Positions 19,167 through 42,419 of a stretch of DNA of 43,605 bases are shown here, piece after piece; positions within the stretch are counted from its first letter, which is position 1, and every line of letters begins with the position of its first letter. Origin of the DNA: Burkholderiaceae bacterium. Its GTDB lineage: Bacteria > Pseudomonadota > Gammaproteobacteria > Burkholderiales > Burkholderiaceae_C. The notes under the pieces were generated by a model. It was not told where the DNA came from, did not search any database, and saw nothing but the letters and a program-made list of their open reading frames with translations. A program made the translations under genes and the position numbers. The stretch spans positions 1 through 43,605 of the forward strand of contig JAIESZ010000321.1 in the NCBI GenBank assembly GCA_019745615.1. The letters are read 5' to 3'.

Positions 19167-21404
19167 TCAGGTCTCGCTGCCTTCAAAAAACCCCCACGCC
19201 ACGCGGTAATCCTCTTTGCGGCTGGCGCGGGTGAAGGGGGCGGTGTAGTGGCGCTGCACCTCACGCAGGCCGCCGGGCAGGGTGTCGTCCATGAGCCATT
19301 GGGTGATGGTGCTGCCGTCGGGCACTTTGGGGGTGCCGCCGCGTTGCAGGGTGTCGGGGTGGTCGGTGGCATCGGGGGTGGGGTAGGCCCAGAGGTCTTC
19401 CCAGCCGAATTGGCCTTCGCGGACTTTGCCATCGGGGGTGGTGATGCGGGTGCGCGGGGTTTTGGGGCCGCCTTTGCGCGCTAGGCCGACGCCGACCAAG
19501 CCTTTGCTGTTGGTAAAGACAATGCGGCCTGCCATGTCGTACCAAGTGTCGCGCTCGTAGCCTTGCATGACGGGGAACTGCACGCGGTAAATCAGCAGCA
19601 GCTCGGCCAGCGTCAGGCCCAAGGCTTGGGCCACCAGCACATCTATTTCGACCAAGGCCATGCGGCGGGCGTAGTCGGAGCGCAGGGCGCAGGTGCGCGT
19701 CCAAGTGCTGGTGAGGGCGGGCCAGAAGCCATGCGGCAGGCGCGGGTTGCCGGGCTGGCTCCAGCTTTGGTCGGCAAAGTCGAGGTCATAGACCTGCTCC
19801 CAGAGGGGGGCGTAGTGGGTGGTGAGGCAGTTGAGGGCCAGATACCGGCTGGCCTGCGCGGGCGACAAGTCAAAGCGCGGCAGTTGCAGCCAAGTGCCGT
19901 GCAAATTACTGCGGCCCATTGATTTTATATACCAATCTGCCACCAACGCGCTACTGATACAGCCTGCCGATAGCAGGTCGGCGGTATCTTGGAAGGCAGC
20001 CGATTGCACGCCGTGGATATGGGCGGTTTGCGGCGGAATGAGTGTGCCGGTGAGGGTGCGCTCGCCAGAGGGCGGAATCATGGCGCGGAAAGCCAACCGG
20101 AAAAACTCCGTCACTGCCCGCTGGCGTGGCCGGTTGACGCGATAAAGCTCCGCATCTTCCTCGGTGGGTTGGGCTGGGTGTTCTCGGTCTAGCAGCCCTT
20201 CCCATGTCACCTCCAGTGTTTCCCAGTCTAGCCAACTGACGCGCGTCGTACGGCGTAGGTATTCGGCGCGGTTGGGCATGGGCCGGTAGTTGGTGCGCGG
20301 CAGGTAGTCATCGGGCAGGGTTTCCAAGTCGATGCCGTCGTAATGTCCGTTGGCCGTACAGACCTTGCGCGGGGTTTTGTTAAACGGATTGGCCAGAAAG
20401 AAATGCGGGCCAGACAGCACCCAATCGTGCGGCGTGGCGGCAAACCCAGAGTCAGTGTTAGAGCGGCGAGTAATCGTTCCGTCAACTTGTGCGTTCTTTT
20501 CGTTCCAGCATGTTGATGGTGTGGGAAAGTAACTCTCACCCAAATCCGATAGGCGGCATGGGTGAGTGGCCAGCTTGGCGAGAACGCTGTTTAAAGCTCC
20601 AGCGTGCAGTGCGGGCAGGCGGGCACGGGATGCCGGGGTGCCGGGTTCGTCATAAAGCTGGGCAAAGGTCGTCAGCGCGGCTTCGTCCACACGCACGATG
20701 CGGTCACGGTGGCCAGCAGTATTCCACTTCCCAGCCTCATTTTTGTAGCCTCCTACGCTGCCTGTGCCATCATGCAGATAGCAGGCATCAACAGAGGTGG
20801 GAGCAAAAAGATTAGCAATTAAGTCAAAATTTATTGTCTCTCTTACTGGCCCGTACAAATTCAATGAAAACGGACGCGAGTGCCCAATTTCAAAAAGCTG
20901 TAATTCATTGATAAATCGACAAACCAACTTTAGTCGCACATACATCGCCTCGCGGAGGTTCCCGCCTTCAGGGTCGTCATACGGCCCTTCAGGATGCAAT
21001 AACCCGGTCACGCCCTGCGCGCTATTTAATCCCCAAGCCAGCGGCATAAAGCATTTGTAAAGGTTGGCCTTCATGCCTTGCAGCAGCGGGTAATTCTGCA
21101 CGGCATTCAAAAAGGCTTGCGTGCCTTCGGCTTCTTGCAGTTCGTCCGTCCATTCGGCTTGCAGGCCAGCAAATTCCCCAAAAGCCTCGGCGCGTAACTT
21201 GGCCAAATTGCTGGCACTGATTTTGCGCACAGCAAACACCGGGTTGCGTTCGCCCAAAATACCGGCTTCGTTCCATTCCACTTTCAACCAAGGCGGATTA
21301 CCCAAAATCAGGTCAAAACCGCCGTTTTGCAGCAGTACATCGGCAAAGCACAGCTCCCAGTGCATAAAGCGGCGCTGTTCGGCAATGGTTTCTACCACGG
21401 GCAC
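19167..21404 (-). CDS. N6-adenine DNA methyltransferase, C-terminal fragment (NPPW motif IV) - frame-shifted continuation of the upstream ORF
   Basis: [17 protein letters not shown] catalytic motif; apparent GTG start lies inside the 8-bp repeat and is probably artefactual. Confidence 0.85.
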   Translation of the reverse strand: [745 protein letters not shown]

Positions 21405-24400
21405 ACGGGCACACGGGCAAAATGTTGGCGCAGGCGGCTAATACGCAACTGGCCCAATTTGTCGTGCAGGCGCGGCGCGGGGGAGGCGGCCAATGCGGGC
21501 TGCACTTCGGCAAAACCAGCCAAACCCGATTGCACTGGCTGGAATACGGGCTCGGGCTGGTGGTTGGCGTTGTCGGCGCTGCTGCTGGCTTCGTCGCTAA
21601 ATTGCAGGTCAAAGCCGGTTTGCGGGGCAATGTCCACGACATTGCCTTCCAAAATCGCGCCCACTTCCATCCACCATTGTTCGCGGCTGGGCAGTTCGGC
21701 ACTGCGGGTAATCGGCCAAAACCACAGGGCGCACCAGTAATCCATCACCAGTTTCAGGCGGCGGAAGGGCGTGGCCAAGTCGCCATCTTCATTGAGCAAA
21801 CCGGCTTTGCGGATGGCCTCTTTTTGCGCCCGGCTGATGCGGCGTTGCTGCTCGCTGGCCGCCTCGCCGGGTTGGTGCGGCCAAACGTGCAACAGGTCTT
21901 CGGTGCGGTCGCGGTCGCGGGCCAGGGCGGCGGTGTGTTCAGCCCACAGGGTATCGACTTGCGCGCTCAGTTGTTGCAGCCGGGCAAGTTCGTAGCCTTC
22001 TAGCGGCTGCTTGAGGGCTTTGTGCCAGTCTTTCAGACGCTTAAAGTCTTCGGGGTAGAGGGCTTTGGCAGTTTTGTCGCCATAGTCGGCCATGCCGGGG
22101 TCGGGCAGCAAAAAATGCCAGATTTCATCCGGGCGGCGCGGCGCGCTGGCGGTGGCGCGGCGTGGGGCTTGTTCGTGCCACGCCGGTTTGGCGGCTTTTT
22201 TCAGGCTGGCGGCGGCATAGACTTGGTGGCGTGCGCCTATCAGGCTGTTACCGGCAAACAGTTGGTAGCCAAACCACGGCACGCGGGCGGGCAGGGGCTG
22301 GCCGTTGTCGTCTTGCTCGCCATAAATGGCATTGAGCCAGATAGAAACTTCGGCCAGCTCTACTGCCACCGGGTTTAAGTCCACGCCGTAGACGTTGCGG
22401 TCGGCCAAGTACATGCGCACTTTTTGCAGCTCTTGCGCGTATTGGTCGTGGGGGATGCGGGTTTTGAGCTCGGCCTGTTTGCGCTCTAGGTAGGCTTCGG
22501 CCAGTTGATTCACGGCTTCGTTCAAAAAGGCGGCGCTGCCCATCGCCGGTTCGCACACCGTGAGGGTGAGGATGTCGTCGGCGGTTTTAACGCGGCCATT
22601 GCTCTCGGCCAGCAGCTCTTTCAGGGCGTATTTGACGAGGCATTGGGTGAGCACCTGCGGCGTGTAGTAACTGGCGCTTTTTTGGCGGTCGCGTCCAGCC
22701 AAGCGGTAGATAAAACTGCCTTTGGGGTGCATACGCAGCTTGTGTTTGCCGTCGTCTTGCCGCTCATAGACCAGTTCATCGTCTTGGTAATCTTCAATGC
22801 GGCTGCGCGGCACAAACCAAGCGTTTTCGAGTAGGTCGGGGCCGCTATCGGCGCTGCTGGAGCGGCTGGGGCGCTCGTCGGCGGCGGATTCTTCCTCGTC
22901 TTCGTCGGCATCGTCGCTGGCGGCGCGGCCTTTTTTGGGCGCGGGCTTGACTTCGTACAGGTCTTCTTCGGCAAAAAAGCCCCGGTAACTGAGCAGGGCT
23001 TCATAGACTGCGCCCAGTTGGTTGATAGAGAGCAGTTGGTAACTGACACGGCCAGCGCGGCGGCCTTTGCCGCCTTTGCTCAAAGACAGCAGTTTGATGA
23101 CTTTTTGCCAAATTTCATTGGGAAACTGCACCTTGCCCAGCAGCGGCATGGAGGCATCGTCAAACAGGCGGCTATCGAGCGGGGCCATCGCAAAGGTGTC
23201 TTTGGCTCCTTGGGCGATGGGCTGGCCTGCATCGCGCAGGTGGGCTTGTTCGCCGCCCAAGCCGCAACCTTGGGCCACCAGTTTGAACAGGCGGCGCAAG
23301 GTGAGGTCAAAAAATTTACCTTCGCGGGCTTGCGGCGTGGTGAGGGGTTGCAGTTCGAGGTCGCGCAGGCTTTCTAGGCTGTAGCCTTTGAGGTAGACCT
23401 CGCTTTTGTTGATGGGCACATAGCCCAGCTCGGGCCGGGCTTCGATGTAGAACATGAACAGCAGGCGATAGACCATGCGCAGGCATTCGAGGCTGAGTTC
23501 ACCGGCTTCGAGCTTGTATTGGCCGGAATAGACGCTTTTTTTGCTGCCGCTGGCTTGTTCGTCCAACTGGCGGGCGGCTTCGTTGCCTAGCAGTTGGATG
23601 GCTTCGCGCAGGGCGTATTTCAAATCCTCGCTGACACCAAAGGCGTGTTTGTGCGCGTTTTCGTCCAAACTTTCGAGCAAGCTGCTGCCTTCGCCGGGGG
23701 CTAGGCTGTCTTTGTGCAGCAGGGCGGCGGCGGCTTTGAGGGTGTCGGTGTCTTTGCGGTCGAGGATGTCGGCCCAGTTAAAGCGCAGGGCGCGGTTGTT
23801 GGGCCATTTGTAGCGGTCGAGCAGCAGCCATTCGTCCAAGCCCAGCAGCAGCACATAGCGCGGCGGGTTGTCAGCGCCAAATACGGCATCGGAGAGTAAA
23901 TCGGCCCAAGTTTCGCCCTTGACGTTGGGGGGCAGGGGTTCATCGCCGTAGTGCAGGGCGGTGAGCTGGTGGTCGAGCAGGTCTTCGTCTTCGCGGCTGG
24001 GCTGGTAGGCCGGAATGATGGCCAAACGGTAAGCGGTGCCAGAACCGGCTTGGTGGCCGAGTAGCTCCCAAATGGGCAGCGGCAGGCCGGGCACCAGTTC
24101 TTGCAGCGCCGGGGTGCGAGAGGGGGCGGCATAGCCCAAGGCTTGCAGCAAGCCGGTTTGCAGTTGCACAAAGCTGGCCCAGCGCTCTTGGGCCTCATGG
24201 CCTTTTTGCACTTGGCCGCGCAAGCCAAACCAGCGCCCGGCCCAGGCTTGCAGGCGTTTGGCCGGGGTGCGCTGGGTTTCGTCGCCGGGGTGTTGGTCTT
24301 CGCTGGCCTGCCAAGCGTCTAAGCGGGCTTTAATGTCACCCTTGAAGACTTCAGCCAAGTAGTGGTGGCTGTAGAACTCGTTTTCGTTGCTGATACCGGC

Positions 24401-24430
24401 AAAGGTTTGAACGGCTTCTAATACGGGCAT
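21392..24430 (-). CDS. N6-adenine DNA methyltransferase (DrmMI/PglX/Eco57I-like), N-terminal fragment
   Basis: Motif I region [53 protein letters not shown]; terminates in TAG immediately after the GCCCGTGT repeat. Confidence 0.88.
   Translation of the reverse strand: [1012 protein letters not shown]
21395..21418 (-). repeat. 8-bp tandem repeat GCCCGTGT GCCCGTGT GCCCGTGG (candidate phase-variation tract)
   Basis: Minus-strand reading of ccacgggcacacgggcacacgggc; deletion of one unit fuses ORF 21392-24430 to ORF 19167-21404. Confidence 0.85.
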
Positions 24431-24433
24431 GGC

Positions 24434-27400
24434 TTAGGCTCCGGCAGGGGCAACGGGGGTCACAGGGGTGGCTGCGGGATGGCAGACGGCGGCTAGTACC
24501 TGAATCCAAGGCTGGGGCTCGGTGGTCAGGGTGTCGTTTACCCACTGGCGGTAGTCATCAAACACGCGGTTAATTTGTTGGCTGCGCTGCTCAAAGCGGC
24601 CCCGTTTGACGGTTTCTAATTGCTTGTCCAGCTCTAGCGTGAGCTGCTCTAGTTGCTTGCCTTGCAGGCGTTGCAACTCGGCCAAGGTGCCTTGCAGACG
24701 CTCGGTTAATTGGGCGGCAAAGGCTTGTTGGCGCTCTAGCATGAACTGGTGCATGGTTTGCACGGCTTGGGGCAAGGCTTGCTGCATCTGCGCTTGCAGG
24801 GCACTTAGGCCATCGGTATGGCCCCGGTTGGGTAAGCCACCGGCTTTGAGGCCGGCACGGTTGGCAAAGGTATCAAAGGGTTCGAGCGTGAAGCTGCCCT
24901 GTCCGACGCGGCTGGCCACTTGCCACTCTACCAAGAGGGGCTGGCCTTTGCGGTTGGGCACCAAGCTCATCAGGATAAAGGCTTGCTCGTCTATGGCCAG
25001 CTTATGGCTTTGCAGCAGCGGGGCTTTGTGGCGGCCAAAGTGCGTGACTACCCGGTCGCCCACCCATTCCATGATGGGGTGCTGTGGCCACAGGTAATGC
25101 AGTTGGGGCCAGGTGTCTTCTTCGGCGCGGGCTTGACGGGCGGTTTCGATAGCCGCCATCATGCGTTGGGTGTCCGCGCACAGGGAGTAGTGGTCATTGG
25201 CCGCTTGCACCTCGCGTGGCAGTTGGCGTAGGCGGTCTTGCAGGTCTTTGGGGGCGGTGATGGCGATGATTTGTTCGGCATCAGCGGCGCTCCATTGGCA
25301 CAGCGTTTGCCCTTGGTTGAGCTGAGTGAGTGCGGTTTTGGCGTAGTGGTAATCGCTGGTAAACAAGGAAGTAGGCTCTGCAATCTGCGCCAAACTGCTG
25401 CCGGTGGCGGGCGTTTCAGGGGCAGCGTCATTGGTGTCAGTCCCACCAAAGAGCTGCATCATCCAATCGCCTTCGTTGTCGGGTTCCTCATCGCTGGCTG
25501 CTTGGTCAAGTTGGGCTTGCACGGCTTCCGGTTGCAGGCCTTCGGCCATGAAGTTGGCCACTTTTTCGGCTTCTTTTTCCGGGTCAAACACGTTGAGGAA
25601 GGCCGAAGGGTCGCCCAAGTTCAGATAGGCTTGGTCGTCTTTGGCTTGCAGGATTTCTAAAATACGCAGGTCGCCGCGAATCTTTTCATTCACGGTTTCG
25701 GTGAACAGGTAAAGAATTTGCGGTTGGTGTTTTTGACCATAGCGGTCGACCCGGCCATTGCGCTGTTGGAACACCATGAGCGACCACGGCAAATCAAAAT
25801 GCACTAGGCGGTGGCAGAAATAATGCAGGTTCAGGCCCTCACTGGCCACGTCGGAGCACAGCAGCACGCGGATGGGGTCGTCAAGGCGGCCAAAGCGGTC
25901 TACCAGCTCTTGCTGTTCGGTGTCTGACATTTGCCCGTGCAGCACGGCCACTTGGTTGGGCTTGAGCTTGAGGTCTTGGCTGAGTTGTTTTTCTAGCCAA
26001 CGCAGGGTTTCAATGCGCTCGGAAAAGACGACCAAGCGGTCTTGGGCTTGGTGGGTTTGCCAAGCAAAAGCGGCTGAGGTCAGTTGCTGCAGCAGGCGTT
26101 GGTACTTGCTAAAACCGCTGGCGGTGGCATCATCGGTCAGGGCGCGCAGGCTATGGGCTAACTCTTGCAGGCTATCGACTTCTTGGGCTTCGGCGGGTGT
26201 GGGGCTGTGTTTACCGGTCAGCAGCTCGATGCGTTTCAGGGTAGATTCCAACGCTGCCGCTGGGCTAGAAAATAGTGCTTTTTGCATCCCCACACGTTGC
26301 AGCTGACTGGATAGACCGCCTTTGCGCTGGCCCCCTTGCGTGAACGATACCTCCAGCAAAGCGCGATAAGCGGCCTCTTCTGGGGCACTGGCGGCTTGGC
26401 GCAAGCACAGGGTTTCGCGTTCTTGAAAGTCGCTGGTCACCTGGTCTTTGATGTCTTTTTTGAAGCGCCGAATCACCAAACCCTTGCTGCGAAAGTCATC
26501 CGGCGTGTAGTGGTCGGGGTCGGAAATGGCTGTAGGGTCAAGCAGGCTCATGAGCGACGCAAAGCTGCGCGCTGAGCCATCGTGCGGCGTGGCCGACAGC
26601 AGCATGAGGGTATCTGAGCGGTTGGAAAGCAGCCGGGCTAAACGGGCGCGGCGCGATAAACCTGATTCACCGGCACGGGCAGCCACGTTGTGGCACTCAT
26701 CAATCACAATGATGTCCCACCAAGCGTTTTCTAGGTAGTTGCGGTACTCCAAATTATTTTTGAGCGTATCCATCGAGATGATGCTGCGGTCAAAATAATT
26801 GAACGGGTTATGGTTTGCCGGAATGCGATTGCGTACCCGTGCCAGCCCCAGCGAGTCCAGCCGCGTCAATGGAATGGAAAAACGGCTCCACCATTCTTTT
26901 TGGAACTGGGTAAGCATGGCTTTTTGCGTGACTACCAAGATGCGTTTGCCGCGCCCACGCTGGATGAGTTCGGTGGCCAGAATGCCCGCTTCTAGCGTTT
27001 TACCCAAGCCCACGGCGTCGGCAATCAGGATGCGCGAACGTGGTTGTCGTAATGCTTGTAAGGCTGGGTCGAGCTGGTAAGGCACTACATTCATCACGCC
27101 CCGATGGCCAAGATGCACCTTGTCATCGTTGGGGACGCTGCGCCGGCGCAGGCTTTCTAGGTAGAGGATAGAAGCGTTGTAGGTGGGACTGGCATCGGGC
27201 ACCAACTCGGTTTTGCTGGGGTCGAGAATTTCGATGGTGTCTTCTAGAGCGGTCAAAAACAGCGCATTCTGGCCACGCACTAAGTCAGAAATACCATCAC
27301 AGGTGAGCAAGTGACCACCATCGGTAGCGGGGTCCACGCGGCGAATCAGCCACTCTTCGTCACGGACAACGGCGCGTGCGCCTGGGGCAAATATGAGCAT
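24434..27400 (-). CDS. SNF2/RapA-like SF2 helicase (DISARM DrmD-like)
   Basis: ILIADAVGLGKTLEAGILATEL, IIVIDECHNVAA, LSATPHDGSARSF, CSDVASEGLNLHYFCHRLVHFDLPWSLMVFQQRNGRVDRYGQ. Confidence 0.85.
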   Translation of the reverse strand: MLIFAPGARAVVRDEEWLIRRVDPATDGGHLLTCDGISDLVRGQNALFLTALEDTIEILDPSKTELVPDASPTYNASILYLESLRRRSVPNDDKVHLGHRGVMNVVPYQLDPALQALRQPRSRILIADAVGLGKTLEAGILATELIQRGRGKRILVVTQKAMLTQFQKEWWSRFSIPLTRLDSLGLARVRNRIPANHNPFNYFDRSIISMDTLKNNLEYRNYLENAWWDIIVIDECHNVAARAGESGLSRRARLARLLSNRSDTLMLLSATPHDGSARSFASLMSLLDPTAISDPDHYTPDDFRSKGLVIRRFKKDIKDQVTSDFQERETLCLRQAASAPEEAAYRALLEVSFTQGGQRKGGLSSQLQRVGMQKALFSSPAAALESTLKRIELLTGKHSPTPAEAQEVDSLQELAHSLRALTDDATASGFSKYQRLLQQLTSAAFAWQTHQAQDRLVVFSERIETLRWLEKQLSQDLKLKPNQVAVLHGQMSDTEQQELVDRFGRLDDPIRVLLCSDVASEGLNLHYFCHRLVHFDLPWSLMVFQQRNGRVDRYGQKHQPQILYLFTETVNEKIRGDLRILEILQAKDDQAYLNLGDPSAFLNVFDPEKEAEKVANFMAEGLQPEAVQAQLDQAASDEEPDNEGDWMMQLFGGTDTNDAAPETPATGSSLAQIAEPTSLFTSDYHYAKTALTQLNQGQTLCQWSAADAEQIIAITAPKDLQDRLRQLPREVQAANDHYSLCADTQRMMAAIETARQARAEEDTWPQLHYLWPQHPIMEWVGDRVVTHFGRHKAPLLQSHKLAIDEQAFILMSLVPNRKGQPLLVEWQVASRVGQGSFTLEPFDTFANRAGLKAGGLPNRGHTDGLSALQAQMQQALPQAVQTMHQFMLERQQAFAAQLTERLQGTLAELQRLQGKQLEQLTLELDKQLETVKRGRFEQRSQQINRVFDDYRQWVNDTLTTEPQPWIQVLAAVCHPAATPVTPVAPAGA

Positions 27401-31430: not shown

Positions 31431-32231
31431 TCACAGGGAGACACTTTTCTCACCAGCCAATGCCATTACTGTAGGACGCAAGTCCGTCCAGCCGCTGGAG
31501 CGCTTGAATTGTTGACGCTGATTCAGAGCTGCAATCGTGTCGGATGTGTTGAACCACATTTGCTGGACTTCTCTCACAGTACGTTCATCGAATTCATAAC
31601 CGCGGGGAAACTGGTTCCTCTCGACTGGCAGCATAGCTTGAATTTCAGCACAAGCGCGATTGATGCTGTACAACAATTGCCTAAGCCGTGCATCCGCTTG
31701 CGTGGCATCCGGCGCGGTTTGTTCAGGCTGCTGTTCACGTTCAGCTTCCCTGGCCAGTACCAACACATGCTGCACATCTTGCAATATCAAACGTGCGGAC
31801 TGCTGAATTTTGGGGTCTGAGGCATAGGTATAACATTGAGCGCAGGAAGCAGCTTCGTGTACCTGTTGCTGGCCAAAATTCAGCCATGCCCTCATTTGCT
31901 CAAGGTCAGCAAGCCGGTTTTTTTGCTCTTGTACTTTGCGCGCTGGTTCTAAGACACGGGTTTCGATGGCCCGTATGAGTTCTTGATAACGCTGAGGCTG
32001 GCCAGCCGTAGCTTGCTGGAGTTGCTGGTGAAAGTCAGTCGGAATCTCGGTCAATCGGTTGGGAAAAGAGCACACGTACTGCTGTGTAGTCATACCACCT
32101 TTGCCATCCTTACTTTTCACATAGTGGTTGCGGTACAGCATGACGCTACTGGAGTTGAACTTCAGGTTGACAGAACAGGGGCCTGTGATGATGGCAGCCT
32201 TGGCGGAAGTTGATTTACGAATAGCACTCAT
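31431..32231 (-). CDS. Hypothetical protein (266 aa)
   Basis: Intact ORF with initial ATG; no recognised domain. Confidence 0.5.
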   Translation of the reverse strand: MSAIRKSTSAKAAIITGPCSVNLKFNSSSVMLYRNHYVKSKDGKGGMTTQQYVCSFPNRLTEIPTDFHQQLQQATAGQPQRYQELIRAIETRVLEPARKVQEQKNRLADLEQMRAWLNFGQQQVHEAASCAQCYTYASDPKIQQSARLILQDVQHVLVLAREAEREQQPEQTAPDATQADARLRQLLYSINRACAEIQAMLPVERNQFPRGYEFDERTVREVQQMWFNTSDTIAALNQRQQFKRSSGWTDLRPTVMALAGEKSVSL

Positions 32232-32839: not shown

Positions 32840-33667
32840 ATGGCTTTGCGCGACTATTTGAACGAACAAATGCTGGGAATTTTGGCCAGCTACCAGTCCA
32901 GCGGGGTAGTACACCACATCGGTGTCGTCTATCCTCGGCTCAACAATGAGCTACAAATTTTCATTCCGCGCGGCCATCAATTGGCACTGGGGTCACTGGT
33001 AACAGTCCATTTGGATAACCGCACAGGAGTCGATGAGCTCGATGCAGAGCTGCGGGTGTATCGCACCTCATACAAAGGGCGTGTACAGGCAGTCGATGAA
33101 AATTGGTTGGTGCTGGAGCCGCTGGACTACAGCCTAGTTCACGGTGTGCGTGCAGTAGATGGTTTTACAGCACCGGGCTACGCTTTTCCAATGGATGCTC
33201 GGCCAGAGCAAGCCTTGCCCTTGAGCCATTTGCAAGCTATTCCTCCGATAGAGCTGAAAGACCATGACAACAAAGTGGGGGTGCTGAGCACTTTGGCCAA
33301 AGGCCAGCCGCACACTACCGTACTGGCTTTTTTATCTACGGCAGAAGATGATGTATTCCTCATCTCTATGCCCGATACATTCAAGGCCTTGCAACTGCGG
33401 CGCAACCCTCACTGCTTTTTCACCATTGATGAGCGTGCAAAGTTCACCTTTGAGCAATCGATTGAGTGGAACTACACCATCGTAGAGATGCGGGCGCACC
33501 AAATACCGACGACAGCCCCGTTGTTTGAACAGGTACGCCGTGCTTTTATCCTGAAGAATCCCTGGGAAGTTGGGTTTTTTCTCAGTCCAGTATTAGAAAT
33601 GTTTCACTTACAGCGCATAGGGCTGGTGTGCGCAGGCCAAGCGCGGCCCTTCGTACTAGACAGCTAA
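32840..33667 (+). CDS. Hypothetical protein with C-terminal split-barrel (PNPOx-like) domain
   Basis: KVGVLSTLAKGQPHTTVLAFLSTAEDDVFLISMPDTFKALQLRRNPHCFFTIDE; start adjusted to the ATG preceded by GGAGGA. Confidence 0.5.
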   Translation: MALRDYLNEQMLGILASYQSSGVVHHIGVVYPRLNNELQIFIPRGHQLALGSLVTVHLDNRTGVDELDAELRVYRTSYKGRVQAVDENWLVLEPLDYSLVHGVRAVDGFTAPGYAFPMDARPEQALPLSHLQAIPPIELKDHDNKVGVLSTLAKGQPHTTVLAFLSTAEDDVFLISMPDTFKALQLRRNPHCFFTIDERAKFTFEQSIEWNYTIVEMRAHQIPTTAPLFEQVRRAFILKNPWEVGFFLSPVLEMFHLQRIGLVCAGQARPFVLDS

Positions 33668-33762
33668 GTGCAACCTGGCTGCGTGTTCTTGACGCAGTTG
33701 CCCCATAGTACATGCCTTACTTCACCATTTCGTGGTAAATTACTTTCAAGCCGAAAGGCTTG

Positions 33763-33957
33763 GTGCTTGAAAACGCCTTTGGTAACGCGGTTGCAACCCC
33801 CAACGAAAAGCGGGGTTTTTTCACGTCTAAATTTTGTGCTCTGGTGTTCATTCGCCACGGCACGCCGGTTTGGACGGGATGGGCTATGTCGTAAGGCTAG
33901 CCGCGTGGCGTTACCCACGTTTTCAACATCCCGTCCATCAACTGTGCTTGAAAACGC
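33763..33957 (+). ncRNA. Candidate P4-type immunity (CI-like) RNA region: seqA-like, terminator, ~65-nt hairpin with seqB-like segment, seqC-like
   Basis: gtgcttgaaaacgc at 33763-33776 and 33944-33957; complementary cgttttcaa 33918-33926 and gcgttacc 33908-33915 (complement of ggtaacgc 33781-33788); hairpin arms ggacgggatg 33872-33881 / catcccgtcc 33927-33936. Confidence 0.55.
33795..33821 (+). terminator. Rho-independent terminator-like hairpin (aacccc caacgaaaagc ggggtttttt)
   Basis: 6-bp stem followed by a T-run, between the seqA-like and seqB-like segments. Confidence 0.6.
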
Positions 33958-34000
33958 GGTCGGTGGGTTCTAAACAAGCCTCGTAACGGAGCACGTTTCT

Positions 34001-34639
34001 ATGTCACGCAACCCTACGCCTGAGTCCTCGTCTGCGCATTACCCATGCCATCCCCACGAACTTGACTGCACAGTTCTTTATCAGCGGGCGATGAGCGGCC
34101 TACACGACGCACTTGAGGTGCTGCGCACCAGCCCCCTATCCACAAGCAATCTCGGACATGCCCTAGGCCGGGGTATGCGTGGAGTCACAGCTCTCAAGCG
34201 ACTCAAAACCTTGAAAACAGAGACGGCCCACTACAGTGATTGCATCACTCCAAAGGCGCAGGGACAAGACGCTGCCCGTTTACCTGTATGCCCAACTAGC
34301 ATTGCCAGTAAAAGACGCAGCCGGCGTCACTTCGATGCAGATTACAAAAAGCAAGTGGTGCACTTGATTAGGCAGCAACGCCTGTCTGCAGGCCAAGCCA
34401 GCGAAAAGTTCAACATCCACCACACGGTTCTGCGCCGCTGGCTGACGGAGTTTGATGCCGAACAAACGAGTGCCGGCACTTTCAACCCCACCGGCTCAGA
34501 GGCAGAGCGTATCCGCGTGCTCGAAGAACGTCTGAGCCAACTTCAATCCGACAACGAACTGCTCAAAAGAGCATCCGCTTTGTTTGCACGAGAACTGGGC
34601 AACGTAGCTGTAGACAAGCCTGTAGCAGCAGGCTACTAA
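34001..34639 (+). CDS. Chimeric ORF: unknown N-terminus fused to IS3-family OrfA-like transposase domain
   Basis: C-terminal half RRHFDADYKKQVVHLIRQQRLSAGQASEKFNIHHTVLRRWLTEFDAEQ...RVLEERLSQLQSDNELLKRASALFARELG is OrfA-like; the N-terminal ~100 aa is not. Confidence 0.65.
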   Translation: MSRNPTPESSSAHYPCHPHELDCTVLYQRAMSGLHDALEVLRTSPLSTSNLGHALGRGMRGVTALKRLKTLKTETAHYSDCITPKAQGQDAARLPVCPTSIASKRRSRRHFDADYKKQVVHLIRQQRLSAGQASEKFNIHHTVLRRWLTEFDAEQTSAGTFNPTGSEAERIRVLEERLSQLQSDNELLKRASALFARELGNVAVDKPVAAGY

Positions 34640-35053: not shown

Positions 35054-35748
35054 TCAATCAAGGCATTGCTGGTAGTCCGTCCAGCGGCCAGTGGGGCGAA
35101 CACCCTGCAGACCCAAACGGCGCATCAAGCGCTCGACGGTGCAACGGGCCACTCGCACGCCTTCACGGTTGAGTTCCAGCCAGACCTTGTCGGCCCCGTA
35201 GACCTGCCAGTTGGCGTGCCAGACGCGCTGAATATCTGCGCTCAGGAATTCATCACGTTGGGCACGCTGTCTGCGCAATGCGGGGCAGCCTTGGCGTGCT
35301 GCATGACGCCAATAACACGATGGGGCCATCTGTAGTACCTGACAGATGGGCTCGACCCCAAAGGTATGGCGGTTGAGGTCAATAAAGCGTTTCAACTCTT
35401 CAAACGGCGGTCGAGCTCCGCCTGGGCGAAAAACGCGCTGGCCAGCTTCAAAATGTCGTTGGCCCGGCGCAATTCTTTGACCTCGCGCTCCAGTTCTTTG
35501 ATTCGTTGGGTATCGGACGTGCTGATACCTAGGCGCTGACCGCTATCGACCTCGGCCTTCTTGACCCACTCGTGCAGGGTGTTGGGCACACAGCCAATCT
35601 TGGGTGCAATCGATTCAATGGCTGCCCACACGGATGGGTACTCTGCCCGGTGCTCCTGCACCATGCGCACGGCACGTTCACGCACTTCGGGTGAGAACTT
35701 GTTTGACTTTGTCATGGCTCCATCTTCTCAGACGTTGGAGTCTCCTCA
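35054..35748 (-). mobile_element. IS3-family element, 3' truncated (intact OrfA 35392-35715, OrfB fragment 35054-35395)
   Basis: Orf[58 protein letters not shown]...; OrfB N-terminus MKRFIDLNRHTFGVEPICQVLQMAPSCYWRHAARQ...; 5' end TGAGGAGACTCCAACGTCTGAG. Confidence 0.9.
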
Positions 35749-37075: not shown

Positions 37076-37346
37076 ACCGCTGCACGGCGGTCATTTGTGC
37101 AACAGAGCCTTTATGTAATGCCTTTACAAGTGACCGAATGTACCGCACAATAAGTTCAAAGTAAATTTAACCGGAACCTAAAAAGACTCATGGCGGTTTT
37201 TTGTGTGGGTAATGGCCTCTATGCCGAGAAAATTCGTCCGATGGCGTTTCATACCCTTGGTTCTGAAGAGTACCCAGGTTCTCGTTATGTGCGGGGCGTT
37301 GGTGCGACGCAGTCGCTTGGGCTTCGTAGTCTTGTTGGCGGGGCCG

Positions 37347-38273
37347 ATGTTTAGCACGAAGTTCGGCCCTTTTAACGGTTCAACTTGGGAGGGCCTGTGT
37401 CAGCAGGTCTTTAAACGCAAGTACCAGGCCGAGTGCTACATGCAAATGCCGGCTTCTCCGGGAGACTACGGTATCGAGGGATACACCGTTAACACCGGAT
37501 GGGCCTTTCAGTGCTACTGCCCAGAGAAGCACTACACACGCAGCGAACTCTACGATAAGCAGCGTGACAAAATAACTACCGACCTGCGAAAACTAAAAGA
37601 CTACGAGAAGGAGCTCGTTGCGCGCCTCGGTAGTACGAAGCTTTCTCGCTGGGTTTTTGTCACACCAGAAATCGACAAGAACGCACTCTTGGAGCACGCA
37701 AAAACCAAAGAAAAGGAAGTTCGTGGCTGGAACCTGCCGCACCTGAGTGACGATTTCACGGTGTTGCTCCATGACGGAGACCATTACCTTGTAGAAATCA
37801 ATGAAGTTCGAGCGGCTTCAGGTGAAGCGCTAGTGTTTGATGACGTCACTCCTGTTCTTGCGGTTCTTTCAGGTGAAAGAGAGGAGTATGAACAGAACGT
37901 TTATCGCAAATCCAGCCACCGACTTGCTGATAAGAAGCAGGCGCCAAATTTCTCGGACCGTGTTCAGCAGCTGAGCCAGCGCACCATCGAGCAGTTTCTG
38001 GAGGCTGATGGGTACTTTCGGCGGATTTCTTCGACATCACCCACAACGTACGTCCGGCTCGTACGGCTCATCAACGAGTATGAACAAACCGTTATTGAGA
38101 CCTCAGCTACTTGGTCAGGAACAGCCGAGGAGTTAACTACGAAAGTTCGCGAGGGTCTGGCAAAGCAGGTGCATGAAGAGCTCTCTCCAGAGTTTGATTT
38201 GGCGAATGCAAATAAAGTCGCAAGACTTATGACTGCCAGATGGTTGGCGGTTTGCGAGTTGGACTATGGTTGA
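37347..38273 (+). CDS. ABC-3C-type system first component, possible divergent PD-(D/E)xK effector
   Basis: Start adjusted to MFSTKFGPFNGSTWEGLCQQVFKRKY; GDYGIEGYTVNTGWAFQCYCPE resembles the GDxGIDG...QCK layout of Mrr-like nucleases; coupled to the next two genes. Confidence 0.5.
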   Translation: MFSTKFGPFNGSTWEGLCQQVFKRKYQAECYMQMPASPGDYGIEGYTVNTGWAFQCYCPEKHYTRSELYDKQRDKITTDLRKLKDYEKELVARLGSTKLSRWVFVTPEIDKNALLEHAKTKEKEVRGWNLPHLSDDFTVLLHDGDHYLVEINEVRAASGEALVFDDVTPVLAVLSGEREEYEQNVYRKSSHRLADKKQAPNFSDRVQQLSQRTIEQFLEADGYFRRISSTSPTTYVRLVRLINEYEQTVIETSATWSGTAEELTTKVREGLAKQVHEELSPEFDLANANKVARLMTARWLAVCELDYG

Positions 38274-38733
38274 AGCGGACGAGCGCCACCGACTGCGCTT
38301 TGAGCGTCGGCCGTCTCCTGTTTTAGCTGAGCACCGGCCGCTTTACAAGATTGGGCAAGTGTTGCTCGTCCTATTTCTCGCTTCGCGAGGCGGAAAGTCA
38401 AGTCTTCCACGACTGCAGCTTTTTAACTGGGCCATGAAATCTCCACGGCGCCAAGCGCAGCTTGTGCTAGCCGTTGGTGAAAGGGAGCTACGCGTTCCAG
38501 CCTGGGGATTTGACCCCACCGTGGCAATTGCCATTCGCATCGCGATTGCTGAGCAGCTCATCACAGAAAACTCGACGGGCTATGAGATTTCGGATGCCGG
38601 TGCGTTGTTCGTGAAAGAAATATTGAAAGACGCTGACTTATTTGGACCCGAGCGTTCGTTTCTGTCGGCGGTAGGAAAGGGGCTGACCGAAGGGATGGTC
38701 GAAGTAACCGCCAGTAGCTGGGAGGAAAAATGA
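38266..38733 (+). CDS. ABC-three-component middle-component-like protein
   Basis: Small wHTH-like protein (HRPLYKIGQVLLVLFLASRGGKSSLPRLQLFNWAM...) between an effector-like gene and an SMC-like ATPase, overlapping both. Confidence 0.6.
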   Translation: MVEADERHRLRFERRPSPVLAEHRPLYKIGQVLLVLFLASRGGKSSLPRLQLFNWAMKSPRRQAQLVLAVGERELRVPAWGFDPTVAIAIRIAIAEQLITENSTGYEISDAGALFVKEILKDADLFGPERSFLSAVGKGLTEGMVEVTASSWEEK

Positions 38734-40766
38734 TTATTCGTGGTGTGCGACTTAGGGCAACTACAAACGAAGGTGACTATGGGTTCAGCTTCAATTTCGC
38801 CAGAAATTTGACCATCATCCGTGCGAAAAATTCAAGCGGCAAGAGCACGCTATTCAACAGCTTACTGTATGGCCTTGGAATGGAAGAGCTGGTGGGGGGA
38901 CGGAATGAAAAAGTGCTGGTTTATGCGCTCAAAGAGCATTTCCAGTACGAAGGTCGACGAATATTGGTAACGGGCTCAGAGGTATTTCTCGAAATCGAGA
39001 ATCGCGAGGGCGACGTGGTTACGCTCCGCCGCTCAATCCGCGATTCGGTTAAAGACCCAAAGCTCATTGAGGTGTTTGTCGGAGCGCATATTACTGAAGG
39101 TGCCGAACTGGGTGAAGCTCGGCCAACTTACGTTCATGATGGCGGTGGGGCACAAAGCCCGATGGGCTTTCATCGCTTTCTTGAGTCGTTTCTTGGATTG
39201 AGCTTACCACGTGTTCCGACAACTAATGGCAGTGAAACCAAGCTCTACTTACAGACGATATTCGCGGCAATGGCAGTGGAGCAAAAAAGGGGGTGGACTG
39301 ACTACATTGCTAGCATTCCGTTCTACGGTATCCGTGATGCCCGTACGCGCGTTGTTGAATTCCTCTTGGGGCTTGGGGTTTTTGAAACAAATGCTTTACG
39401 CAATAGGTTAAATGCAGAGTCGATAGAGATTGATGCTGACTGGCGCAAGACTGTTGAGGAGCTTCGAAGGGAAGCGACAGCTGTGGGCTCCGTTGTCGAA
39501 GGTGTGTCTGGAACACCAACCGCACTTTTCGACGAAGCTGCCGCAACTATTCGGCGGCTTTCGGGTAGTTCGTCTGTAACGCTGACCGAGCACATCAGTC
39601 AGTTGCTGTCTGAGTATGCCGCGTTGCAATTGCAGGCGCAGGAATACCACAAGACGTCCGGCGCTGAAGCGATGCAGGGCCTGACGGTTGCTATGGATGA
39701 GCTACAGCAGTTAAGTGTGTTGCACGAACGTGCGACGGCTCGTCACATTGAGCTACGCGTATCTTTGAAGGATTACGAGAAATTGCTGGCAGAGGCCAAT
39801 GAGGACCTCGAGCGAAACAAGACAGCCGCGAAACTACGAGAGCTCGGTGCAAAACATGAGGTAGCTACTGCATCCGGAAAATGTCCAACTTGCAATCAAC
39901 CTGTAGAAGATACGTTGCTTGCGGATGCTGTTACCGGTCCCCAAATGGACCTTGCCACTAACATCGCCTACCTAAATAGCCAACGGCGCATGCTCTTGCG
40001 TCAAATTGCAGGCCTGAAGTCGGAACTACAAGCTACTGAAGTCCGAGTATCGGAACTAGCCGGTCGTATCGCTAGGAAGCGAGACCTACTTACAGCCATG
40101 CGCGGAGATGTCACTTCCGGAGCCTCTGAATCGAAAGCCGTGGTGCGCCGGCAGATTCAGATTGAGGTTGAAGTGGAGGCGCTGGAACGACTTCAGGCAA
40201 AAGCAGTTGAGCTCTTTAGCCGACTGGTGCTGATAGCGAAGCGTTTGAGTAACAACCAAGCAGCCAGAAGGTCCGTACCCAAGGAGACTTACAGTGTGGA
40301 GGACATTGAGCGTATCAAGCGCTTCCAGTTTTACTTTCGCGCTAACGCAGGCTCTTTCGGTTACGAGAGCGCTCCAATTGGCGATGTCGAAATTGGTAAA
40401 GACACCCTTGTTCCGTGCTTGGCACAGATGGAATTGCGAGAGATACGTACCGATATCAAGTCTGATTCGAGCGCAAGCGACTTTGTGAGACTTATCTGGA
40501 GCTACCTTCTGGCTCTTTATCAGACGTCATCCTCACCTTCTTCGCCAGGGAACCATCCAGGGCTGTTGATGTTTGATGAGCCTGGGCAGCACTCTATGGC
40601 AGTCGATAGTCAGCATGCACTACTGAAACAACTCGCCAGTGAATCGACTCTGCAAAGCATCGTCGCAGCCTCATTCGACGAAACGGAAGAAGTGTTCCGA
40701 CAGGCAACAGACGGACTTAAGTACACCTTAATTGAATGGGATGGCAAGCTGATTCGACCTTTGTAG
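38730..40766 (+). CDS. SMC/Rad50-like ABC ATPase of an ABC-3C-like system
   Basis: FNFARNLTIIRAKNSSGKSTLFNSLLYGLG (Walker A), coiled coil with CPTCNQP zinc hook-like motif, LLMFDEPGQHSMA (Walker B/D-loop). Confidence 0.85.
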   Translation: MIIRGVRLRATTNEGDYGFSFNFARNLTIIRAKNSSGKSTLFNSLLYGLGMEELVGGRNEKVLVYALKEHFQYEGRRILVTGSEVFLEIENREGDVVTLRRSIRDSVKDPKLIEVFVGAHITEGAELGEARPTYVHDGGGAQSPMGFHRFLESFLGLSLPRVPTTNGSETKLYLQTIFAAMAVEQKRGWTDYIASIPFYGIRDARTRVVEFLLGLGVFETNALRNRLNAESIEIDADWRKTVEELRREATAVGSVVEGVSGTPTALFDEAAATIRRLSGSSSVTLTEHISQLLSEYAALQLQAQEYHKTSGAEAMQGLTVAMDELQQLSVLHERATARHIELRVSLKDYEKLLAEANEDLERNKTAAKLRELGAKHEVATASGKCPTCNQPVEDTLLADAVTGPQMDLATNIAYLNSQRRMLLRQIAGLKSELQATEVRVSELAGRIARKRDLLTAMRGDVTSGASESKAVVRRQIQIEVEVEALERLQAKAVELFSRLVLIAKRLSNNQAARRSVPKETYSVEDIERIKRFQFYFRANAGSFGYESAPIGDVEIGKDTLVPCLAQMELREIRTDIKSDSSASDFVRLIWSYLLALYQTSSSPSSPGNHPGLLMFDEPGQHSMAVDSQHALLKQLASESTLQSIVAASFDETEEVFRQATDGLKYTLIEWDGKLIRPL

Positions 40767-40784
40767 ACTGTGAATATGAGAGCG

Positions 40785-42419
40785 TTACTTGCTAAGAGCA
40801 GAGCTTTGGCCGCAATAAGTGGGATTTTGCAGGAGGGGTACTGGGATTGGTCTACCCGCTGCGAGCACCTGCCCAGCTAGAGCTGCTTCCACGATTTCGA
40901 CCACGATATTGCGTTCAGCCACTGCCGTGCGCGCGGCACAACTCACTAAGGCTACTGCAACAGCAGCTTCCGGTAAACCCACCTGCTGGGAAAGTTCGAA
41001 TGCAATAGCATGTGGGTCCCCACGGCCACAACGCTCAAGTGCCGTGCGCGCATCATTATCGGAGTCACAGCCTAATTGAGTTCGAATTTCAGCAATCCCA
41101 GCGTTCCGAGCAACCTCAAATGCCCACAGTTCTGGGCAAGCGGTACCTGGTAGCGTGGCCCAAGACAACCTTCGTTCCGCAGTTGCATGGGGGTATCGGA
41201 CGCGAGCAGCTTGCACGTATCCTGTTGCTTCCTGCTCTGTAACATCACCATCCCACAAAATGAGGCATCTTGTTTGCTCCATCAATCGCAAATGGCTCTG
41301 CGCTTGTAAAGCGAGCTCAGACTTTGCACCACAGCTTTTGATGGCGACCCTGCGGCGCGTTGATTTGGGCAGCATTTGCATAACAAGCTCCACGGAAAAT
41401 TCATCTTCGCACAAGATAACAAGTTCACTGTGATTGGTATCAGACATCTCAGAAAGTGCGAACTGAGTTGACGGACTAGCAATCACTCTATGTGAGGTAG
41501 GCTCTCGCACGACCAATACTCGAGCTTGTCTCGGTAATTGGTCAAGAACGTGATGAGAGTGCGTCGACCCAATAATTTGTAGCTTCCGCTCCCATGCGAT
41601 TTGAATCAGCGCTTTGACTGCTCTTTTCTGTGCAGCAGGATGCAGCCCTGTCTCAAGTTCTTCAAGGACAACTAGAGACCCCTCTGGGACTGAGTAAAGC
41701 CGAGAAAGCAGGCCTATGAGCGCATCTTCCCCCGTGCCCATATTAAAGCTGGTGTAACCACCGACATTCCCACTGCGTCGAATGCTGGATTTACGTCCTT
41801 TTAGGGTCTCAGCGCTTGGATAAGTTCGAGAAAGTACTTGCTCAAGGTGGGTCCGAGCTCCTTGCTGGAGCGCGACTGTCACCGGGTTGGCTCTAAGGCT
41901 GAATTGGGTGCGCAGAATCGATAGTTCAATGGCAGGCATTGCCCTAGAAAGACCAAGAAATTCAACCGGTCTTGCAGGTCTTCTTTCGTAATGCATCCAC
42001 TTGTCAGAGCGTTTCGATATCGAAATCGATGCATCTCCAGAGTACGTCCACTCCAAATTCACACCAGTAGGGTCAGCATCACCTGGACCTCGGTGAAAAA
42101 AGTCCTGAAAGGTGTAGTAACTAAACTTTGCGGGACCTAGCCCCGAGAACCGACGTGCATTTGCTGATATGTGTCCTGCATAGCCATGAAAGGCAAGGGC
42201 TGCGAGAGCCAACAATGTTGTCTTCCCGCTGCCGTTTTGCCCAGATAGAAATGTGACCGGATAGCTAAATTCCACTTTTAGCTCACGTATACCTCTTAGA
42301 CCAAGGCCAACCGGTGCTTGAATACAAATCGACTTCAGGAGCGGAAATTGACCGAACCTCTCGTGTTCCCAGGCATTTTGTAAATTTCTCTCAGTGTTAT
42401 TCAGTCTGGTACCCGGCAC
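40785..42419 (-). CDS. AAA ATPase with C-terminal TOPRIM-like domain (OLD-family nuclease-like)
   Basis: FLSGQNGSGKTTLLALAALAF, LVVLEELETGLHPAAQKRAVKALIQIA, IIGSTHSHHVLDQLP, then VILCEDEFSVELVMQML and RCLILWDGD (TOPRIM E...DxD). Confidence 0.75.
   Translation of the reverse strand: MPGTRLNNTERNLQNAWEHERFGQFPLLKSICIQAPVGLGLRGIRELKVEFSYPVTFLSGQNGSGKTTLLALAALAFHGYAGHISANARRFSGLGPAKFSYYTFQDFFHRGPGDADPTGVNLEWTYSGDASISISKRSDKWMHYERRPARPVEFLGLSRAMPAIELSILRTQFSLRANPVTVALQQGARTHLEQVLSRTYPSAETLKGRKSSIRRSGNVGGYTSFNMGTGEDALIGLLSRLYSVPEGSLVVLEELETGLHPAAQKRAVKALIQIAWERKLQIIGSTHSHHVLDQLPRQARVLVVREPTSHRVIASPSTQFALSEMSDTNHSELVILCEDEFSVELVMQMLPKSTRRRVAIKSCGAKSELALQAQSHLRLMEQTRCLILWDGDVTEQEATGYVQAARVRYPHATAERRLSWATLPGTACPELWAFEVARNAGIAEIRTQLGCDSDNDARTALERCGRGDPHAIAFELSQQVGLPEAAVAVALVSCAARTAVAERNIVVEIVEAALAGQVLAAGRPIPVPLLQNPTYCGQSSALSK

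What the first reader, a model, noticed from the sequence alone, without database searches (positions are those of the whole stretch)
33763..33957. P4-like satellite/prophage immunity RNA (seqA-seqB-seqC architecture)
Two identical 14-mers gtgcttgaaaacgc (33763, 33944) flank a segment GCGTTACC-CA-CGTTTTCAA (33908-33926) whose halves are complementary to the first copy and its flank (TTGAAAACG...GGTAACGC, 33768-33788) and partly to the second. This segment sits at the 3' side of a hairpin with perfect 10-bp arms spanning 65 nt (33872-33936), and a terminator-like hairpin lies between seqA and the hairpin. Phage P4 immunity uses a ~69-nt CI RNA whose seqB pairs with seqA and seqC of the nascent transcript to provoke termination. 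No integrase or alpha primase is visible, so this may be an isolated relic or a domesticated superinfection-immunity RNA.
Basis: partly seen in the sequence, partly recalled or inferred. Interest (0 to 1): 0.8.

Follow-up and report, generated by a model that had tools for sequence, protein, structure and literature searches.

The report
C4-type antisense immunity RNA module
This stretch encodes a small RNA of the kind phages P1 and P4 use to silence their own and incoming relatives' genes; it belongs to a large, apparently unlisted bacterial branch of that system with dozens of different RNA "lock-and-key" codes, and a so-called virulence RNA of plant pathogens turns out to have the same design.

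Summary
Window 33730-34001 is a complete C4/CI-type antisense module: promoter-like start, target pair a1+b1 (seqA), terminator, a 65-nt three-stem RNA carrying b' (P3 loop) and a' (single strand) (seqB), then a2 (seqC) and b2 overlapping the Shine-Dalgarno of gene 34001-34639. The same order is annotated in phage P1 and present in P4. A covariance model finds the element in 30 of 251 genomes of the bacterial family (Comamonas/Delftia/Acidovorax group), up to 10 copies per genome. Of 96 elements with flanks, 74 keep all four cognate sites (0.7% after swapping codes), with 82 different codes; the RNA helices covary (0 of 500 shuffles). It is an RNA, not a protein gene. It scores below every Rfam family, so it is a new branch rather than a listed member. 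Unexpectedly, Rfam's sRNA-Xcc1, described as a virulence-controlled integron sRNA, shows the same fold and a1b1/a2b2 logic, and in some loci sits on the leader of SymE toxin or KilA-N genes. Relatives lie in phage satellites; the window copy sits in a defence island. RNA production and silencing remain untested.

The parts
33733..33741 (+). -10-like promoter element (TGGTAAATT); transcription start inferred just downstream
   Evidence: conserved TGG(T/C)A(A/C)AATT-like block at the same distance in 19 congeneric loci; the consensus scan alone found no promoter, so inferred
33750..33759 (+). short leader hairpin GCCGAAAGGC
   Evidence: conserved with changes on both arms in relatives
33762..33777 (+). 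target a1 (first half of seqA): TTGAAAACG, in a hairpin loop GGTG..CGCC
   Evidence: perfect complement of a' 33918-33926; covaries with a'
33781..33788 (+). target b1 (second half of seqA): GGTAACGC
   Evidence: complement of the P3 loop; 87 of 96 elements keep b1 against 2.4% after swapping
33795..33821 (+). intrinsic terminator between seqA and the RNA (CCCC..GGGGTTTTTT)
   Evidence: read directly; conserved in 19 loci; same place as the isrK/a1b1 terminator of P4
33872..33936 (+). C4/CI-like antisense RNA (seqB carrier): P1 33872-33881/33927-33936, P2 33882-33902, P3 33903-33920
   Evidence: fold z -6.1; model R1 79.4 bits; covariation 194 double-changed cells against 44.5 shuffled
33909..33914 (+). 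b' : P3 loop CGTTAC, pairs with b1 and b2
33918..33926 (+). a' : CGTTTTCAA, mostly single-stranded between P3 and P1, pairs with a1 and a2
33948..33957 (+). target a2 (seqC): TTGAAAACGC
   Evidence: 80 of 96 elements keep a2
33980..33992 (+). target b2: CTCGTAACGGAGC, loop GTAACG complementary to b', overlapping the Shine-Dalgarno GGAG 33988-33991
   Evidence: 92 of 96 elements keep b2, 5.2% after swapping
34001..34639 (+). gene under control: 212 aa, HTH_Tnp_1 domain (residues 106-182) plus coiled coil, family-specific N-terminal domain
   Evidence: Pfam PF01527 E 2.6e-5; full-length relatives directly behind the same RNA in L004, L005, L014, L020
31431..32231 (-). 266-aa gene of unknown family that travels with the HTH_Tnp_1 version of the module
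   Evidence: homologues in the three other contigs L111, L114, L115; no Pfam family

Best explanation
It is a self-contained antisense-RNA switch of the P1 C4 / P4 CI type that silences the gene behind it and any incoming element with the same code. A promoter near 33735 makes a leader transcript. The 65-nt three-stem RNA is cut out of it (inferred). Its two exposed words, b' (P3 loop CGTTAC) and a' (TTTTCAA strand), pair with a1+b1 early in the nascent transcript, favouring termination at 33795-33821, and with a2+b2 further down, covering the Shine-Dalgarno of the 212-aa HTH gene and stopping its translation. While the RNA is present the operon stays off, and a newly arrived element with the same two words is silenced in trans (immunity), whereas one with other words is not. 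Shown here: anatomy, conservation, covariation, code diversity. Inferred: processing, termination, trans immunity, and the role of the HTH protein, probably the regulator that switches the mobile island on.
For: Anatomy in sequence. Multi-copy recurrence in the genus and family: 30 of 251 genomes, up to 10 copies. RNA covariation: 92% of cells paired, 19 of 23 pairs with changes on both sides, 0 of 500 shuffles on every measure, slid controls at most 0.108 against 0.371. Four-site code: all four cognate sites in 74 of 96 elements against 0.7% after swapping, 82 distinct codes; exact-word version. Same order annotated in P1 and readable in P4. Relatives sit in integrase-AlpA-primase-DUF3987(-capsid) satellites and one in front of a KilA-N gene, an antirepressor-type domain also found in P1.
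Against: No Rfam family reaches even E=10 in the window and the core model does not find P1 or P4, so descent from C4 is not shown by sequence. No integrase or primase recognised beside the window copy. The gene behind it is unlike icd/ant/epsilon. Two relatives in a Delftia genome lack all targets (L059:2896, L061:3937). The test that co-resident elements avoid sharing a code was uninformative (0 of 88 pairs, 0.19 expected). No RNA data.
Confidence: 0.88

Rival explanations
1. Antitoxin-like use: the RNA works by the same pairing, but its job in this island is to keep one harmful or costly gene (the HTH_Tnp_1 protein) silent, as a stabilisation module, rather than to give immunity.
For: Sister RNAs of the sRNA-Xcc1 type sit on the leader of SymE-family toxin genes with a1b1/a2b2 intact. 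The window copy lies in a defence island, not in a recognisable satellite.
Against: The HTH_Tnp_1 protein has no known toxin domain; most relatives lie in satellites with integrase and primase.
Confidence: 0.3
2. Relic: a dead copy left after the loss of a satellite or prophage.
For: No integrase or primase recognised nearby; IS elements on the right side.
Against: All stems and all four sites are perfect in the window, the downstream frame is open, and the same arrangement with the same gene occurs in four further contigs.
Confidence: 0.08
3. Transposon end or DNA hairpin: the inverted repeats belong to a small mobile element because the gene has a transposase-type DNA-binding domain.
For: Multi-copy and next to an HTH_Tnp_1 gene.
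Against: G-U pairs and compensatory changes in the stems, changes coupled between loop and distant target words, and many downstream genes unrelated to transposases.
Confidence: 0.02
4. Protein gene: ORF 33668-33973 (or the minus-strand ORF 33664-33918) is coding.
For: Open reading frames of 101 and 84 aa.
Against: No Pfam family; stops or net frame changes in most of 18 homologues on the plus strand and stops in most on the minus strand; structure and word covariation explain the constraint.
Confidence: 0.01

Closest known systems
C4 antisense RNA of phages P1/P7 (Rfam RF01695, clan CL00128 with c4-a1b1 RF03163)
   Same: Order a1,b1 - terminator - RNA - a2,b2(RBS) - gene; P1 stem, tetraloop-type P2, P3 whose loop carries one word, second word single-stranded before the closing strand
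   Different: No sequence score; P1 stem 10-11 bp against about 17; downstream gene not icd/ant; very many codes in one bacterial family
P4 CI RNA (seqA-seqB-seqC); Rfam scores it as C4, 74.9 bits
   Same: seqB pairs with seqA and seqC; terminator after seqA; also a b word at the ribosome-binding site (TTCACAGGAGG)
   Different: No alpha primase/integrase recognised next to the window copy; different gene behind it
sRNA-Xcc1 (Rfam RF02221): Northern-confirmed in Xanthomonas (PMC2996969), with symE the most widespread Xanthomonas integron cassette (PMC12444791), five clustered copies in Xylella (PMC12189769)
   Same: Same three-stem plan; five congeneric loci hit it below cut-off and model R1 hits 20 of 29 sRNA-Xcc1 cores at E<10, best 2.5e-4; the same a1b1/a2b2 targets
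   Different: Longer P2, different P1 sequence; the window itself gives no hit; not described as an immunity or antitoxin RNA in the papers read
IsrK / Gifsy-1 (RF01394)
   Same: Corresponds to the terminated a1b1 leader, called a structural homologue of P4 seqA (PMC4825925)
   Different: IsrK activates the downstream operon in the published work; no Rfam hit here

Membership tests
C4 antisense RNA (Rfam RF01695) | Score at or above the family's cut-off | tested here: not met
   Nothing at E<=10 in 33600-34100; no C4 hit in 18 related loci
C4 antisense RNA (Rfam RF01695) | Three-stem fold with one word in the P3 loop and one in the strand before the closing stem | tested here: met
   compared with the C4 alignment
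C4 antisense RNA (Rfam RF01695) | a1,b1 upstream and a2,b2 downstream, b2 at the ribosome-binding site | tested here: met
   P1 annotation
C4 antisense RNA (Rfam RF01695) | Downstream icd/ant-type antirepressor operon | tested here: not met
   HTH_Tnp_1 gene in the window; KilA-N only in some relatives
C4 antisense RNA (Rfam RF01695) | Processed about 77-nt RNA that represses in trans | not testable with these tools
   Needs RNA work
P4-like satellite | Integrase and alpha-type primase in the same element | tested here: not met
   None recognised among the window ORFs listed or scanned (not every ORF was scanned); relatives elsewhere do have integrase, AlpA, DUF927/DUF3987
sRNA-Xcc1 (Rfam RF02221) | Score at or above cut-off | tested here: not met
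   Window none; five congeneric loci 32-37 bits against cut-off 53
SymE type I toxin-antitoxin | SymE-family protein behind the RNA | tested here: not met
   Window protein is HTH_Tnp_1; SymE only in sRNA-Xcc1-type loci

The most novel reading that the evidence does not exclude
C4-type RNAs are kept by bacteria as a stock of acquired immunities: tandem arrays in which upstream units have lost their own targets and gene but keep the hairpin and mostly a different code (Delftia L059, L061; three arrays in G750, L232-L234), and sRNA-Xcc1 copies carried in integrons, would act in trans against satellites and prophages with the matching code.
Probability: 0.13. Interest if true: 0.85.

Novelty: new variant of a known kind. 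Interest (0 to 1): 0.63.

Why it matters
C4/CI immunity is known from a few enterobacterial phages. Here one bacterial family carries at least 82 codes built from two independently varying words, often several per genome, so the specificity of antisense immunity can be studied on natural variation. It also gives a testable mechanism for sRNA-Xcc1, until now described as a virulence-regulated sRNA with predicted chromosomal targets: its conserved targets are its own leader and the ribosome-binding site of the gene behind it, sometimes a SymE toxin.

Tried and rejected
Rfam on the window at cut-off and at E<=10: no relevant family (the only cut-off hit, ALIL, belongs to the IS3 copy). R1 against P1 and P4: nothing significant, so a sequence-level link to C4 is not claimed. 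Element DNA against plasmid and phage collections: none. The gene's protein in genome contigs: none confirmed; in the family only its HTH half matches ordinary IS OrfA-type proteins. Code avoidance between co-resident elements: no power. First pass on sRNA-Xcc1 loci used the wrong strand for minus hits and was redone. SymE protein against plasmids gave only weak partial hits. Protein-coding and transposon-end readings rejected.

Full report
OBSERVATION. The 14-mer GTGCTTGAAAACGC occurs at 33763 and 33944, the hairpin 33872-33936 has perfect 10-bp arms, and 33918-33926 is the perfect complement of 33767-33775. The 66-nt RNA folds to one dominant three-stem structure, -37.8 kcal/mol, z = -6.1. 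Rfam gives nothing here at cut-off or up to E=10. The seqB duplex with the upstream target is -22.3 kcal/mol (0 of 500 shuffles as good) and with the downstream one -17.1 (4 of 500).

RECURRENCE. The 238-bp stretch has two further, diverged copies in the same genome and occurs in 11 of 27 genomes of the genus. Aligning 19 of them shows a fixed plan: a -10-like box, a GNAA leader hairpin, a GGTG..CACC hairpin with a variable loop, a second variable word, an intrinsic terminator, a spacer, the three-stem RNA, a second variable-loop hairpin, and a last hairpin CTC..GAG whose 3' strand is the Shine-Dalgarno of the next gene. The spacer between terminator and RNA is free to vary and is almost absent in four loci (L004, L005, L014, L020).

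COVARIATION WITHIN THE RNA. A covariance model of the 65-nt core (R1) found 53 places in 30 of 251 family genomes, among them ten in one genome and six in another; none outside the family in 369 class genomes. On 68 aligned cores 92% of pair cells are standard pairs, 19 of 23 pairs show changes on both sides, 194 double-changed cells against 44.5 in shuffles, 0 of 500 shuffles as high on any measure, and sliding the partners destroys the signal. The alignment is fitted to the structure, so it leans towards it; the size of the effect and the slid controls make that minor. Named carriers include Comamonas, Delftia, Acidovorax, Simplicispira, Giesbergeria, Limnohabitans, Polaromonas, Rhodoferax and Ottowia.

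THE TWO-WORD CODE. In each RNA the P3 loop (b', usually CTNNNN or CGNNNN) and the strand before the closing stem (a', for example GTTTTCAA, GTTCTTAA, GTTTTGAA, GTTACGAA) change between elements. Each has a complementary word upstream (a1, b1) and downstream (a2, b2). With exact words, 30, 53, 25 and 61 of 68 elements match at a1, b1, a2, b2; swapping codes between elements gives means of 7, 6, 6 and 4. With position limits and a small tolerance, 74 of 96 elements have all four sites and 91 have at least three, against 0.7% and 3.1% after swapping (a few of the 96 are near-duplicates, for example L178 is the same contig as L012). There are 82 distinct codes from 51 b words and 20 a words; the same a word occurs with many b words and the reverse, so the halves assort. 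The leading CT/CG of b' is explained by pairing with the AG/CG next to the Shine-Dalgarno. The window element (CGTTAC / GTTTTCAA) has all four sites perfect. Its code is shared with the Simplicispira metamorpha copy L004, which carries the same gene.

COMPARISON. The annotated P1 record lists a1, b1, C4, a2, b2 and then icd, with a2 and b2 noted as repressing icd/ant translation. Rfam scores P4 CI as C4 at 74.9 bits and P4 seqA as isrK/c4-a1b1. Reading P1 and P4 gives the same order as here, including the terminator after a1b1. By mode of action the window element is therefore of the C4/CI kind. By membership it is not filed in RF01695: the score test fails and R1 does not find P1 or P4.

AN UNEXPECTED RELATIVE. 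Five congeneric loci matched Rfam sRNA-Xcc1 over its full length at E 0.007-0.1, below cut-off, and in reverse R1 hits 20 of 29 sRNA-Xcc1 cores at E<10, best 2.5e-4, unfiltered search. sRNA-Xcc1 hits from two searches were tested for the same logic: of 56 distinct elements, 43 have a cognate upstream a1+b1 pair at score >=13 (3.4% for non-cognate flanks) and 25 a downstream pair (1.2%); the own flank ranks first or ties in 38 (upstream) and 32 (downstream) of 56. In L102, for example, GGAGAGTGAAAACTCC, CCAAAAGG, a terminator, the RNA, GCAACGTGAAAATTGC and AAAAGGAG lie in this order before a SymE gene. SymE follows in several loci; one genome (G695) has nearly identical SymE genes behind RNAs with different codes. 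KilA-N or Rha-like genes follow in others. The papers read describe sRNA-Xcc1 as virulence-associated and its relation to symE as an open question (PMC12444791, PMC2996969, PMC12189769). The link to C4-type regulation was not found in the library searched; that is not proof that nobody has noted it.

CONTEXT. Many relatives lie in satellite-like elements: integrase, the RNA, a small protein of no known family, an AlpA-type gene, a DUF927 or DUF3987 replication protein, and in some a phage capsid gene. The window copy instead precedes a 212-aa HTH_Tnp_1 protein; four other contigs carry this version, three of them together with a homologue of the gene at 31431-32231, with different cargo in between. 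The window as a whole is a defence island: DruE-like, type IIG/DrmD-like and Lamassu genes.

ORPHANS. Two Delftia contigs and three arrays in G750 carry two cores in tandem, 270-600 bp apart; in each the upstream unit lacks the downstream targets and a gene while the downstream unit has upstream targets and a gene behind it, and four of the five pairs differ in code. This is the basis of the novel case; degeneration after duplication is the simpler reading.

MECHANISM AND LIMITS. Shown: anatomy, covariation inside the RNA and between RNA and four target words, code diversity, gene context. Inferred from P1/P4: processing, premature termination after a1b1 pairing, block of translation at b2, trans immunity. 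Not tested: any RNA or phenotype. The test for code avoidance among co-resident elements had no power.

Noticed in passing
window 1852-27400 and 37203-42419: Defence island: DruE-like (Druantia) 3965-10381(-), UvrD/NERD helicase 1852-3960(-), type IIG restriction-methylation split over two ORFs 19167-24430(-), DrmD-like SNF2 24434-27400(-), Lamassu LmuA/LmuB 37203-40766(+), HEC-04-like ATPase 40785-42419(-).
   Followed up: partly
window 31431-32231 (-); L111, L114, L115: 266-aa gene of no known family that accompanies the HTH_Tnp_1 version of the module, with variable cargo between the two (PNPOx-like gene in the window, an ATPase-like gene in L114, HipA-like and GNAT-like genes in L115): looks like a cargo hotspot.
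   Followed up: partly
L232, L233, L234 (genome G750); L059, L061 (Delftia): Tandem C4-like units with an upstream orphan RNA; similar to five clustered sRNA-Xcc1 copies and an adjacent sRNA-Xcc1/isrK/C4 cluster reported in Xylella (PMC12189769).
   Followed up: partly
L207, L221, L224, L227, L229 (genome G695): Nearly identical SymE-family toxins each behind a C4-like RNA, with four different codes among the five.
   Followed up: no
L122:2321-4120(-), L128:15104-16798: Satellite-like elements carrying the RNA also carry a phage capsid protein gene, suggesting capsid-forming satellites.
   Followed up: no
window 35054-35715 (-): IS3-family copy with an ALIL frameshift pseudoknot (104.9 bits) next to the module.
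   Followed up: no
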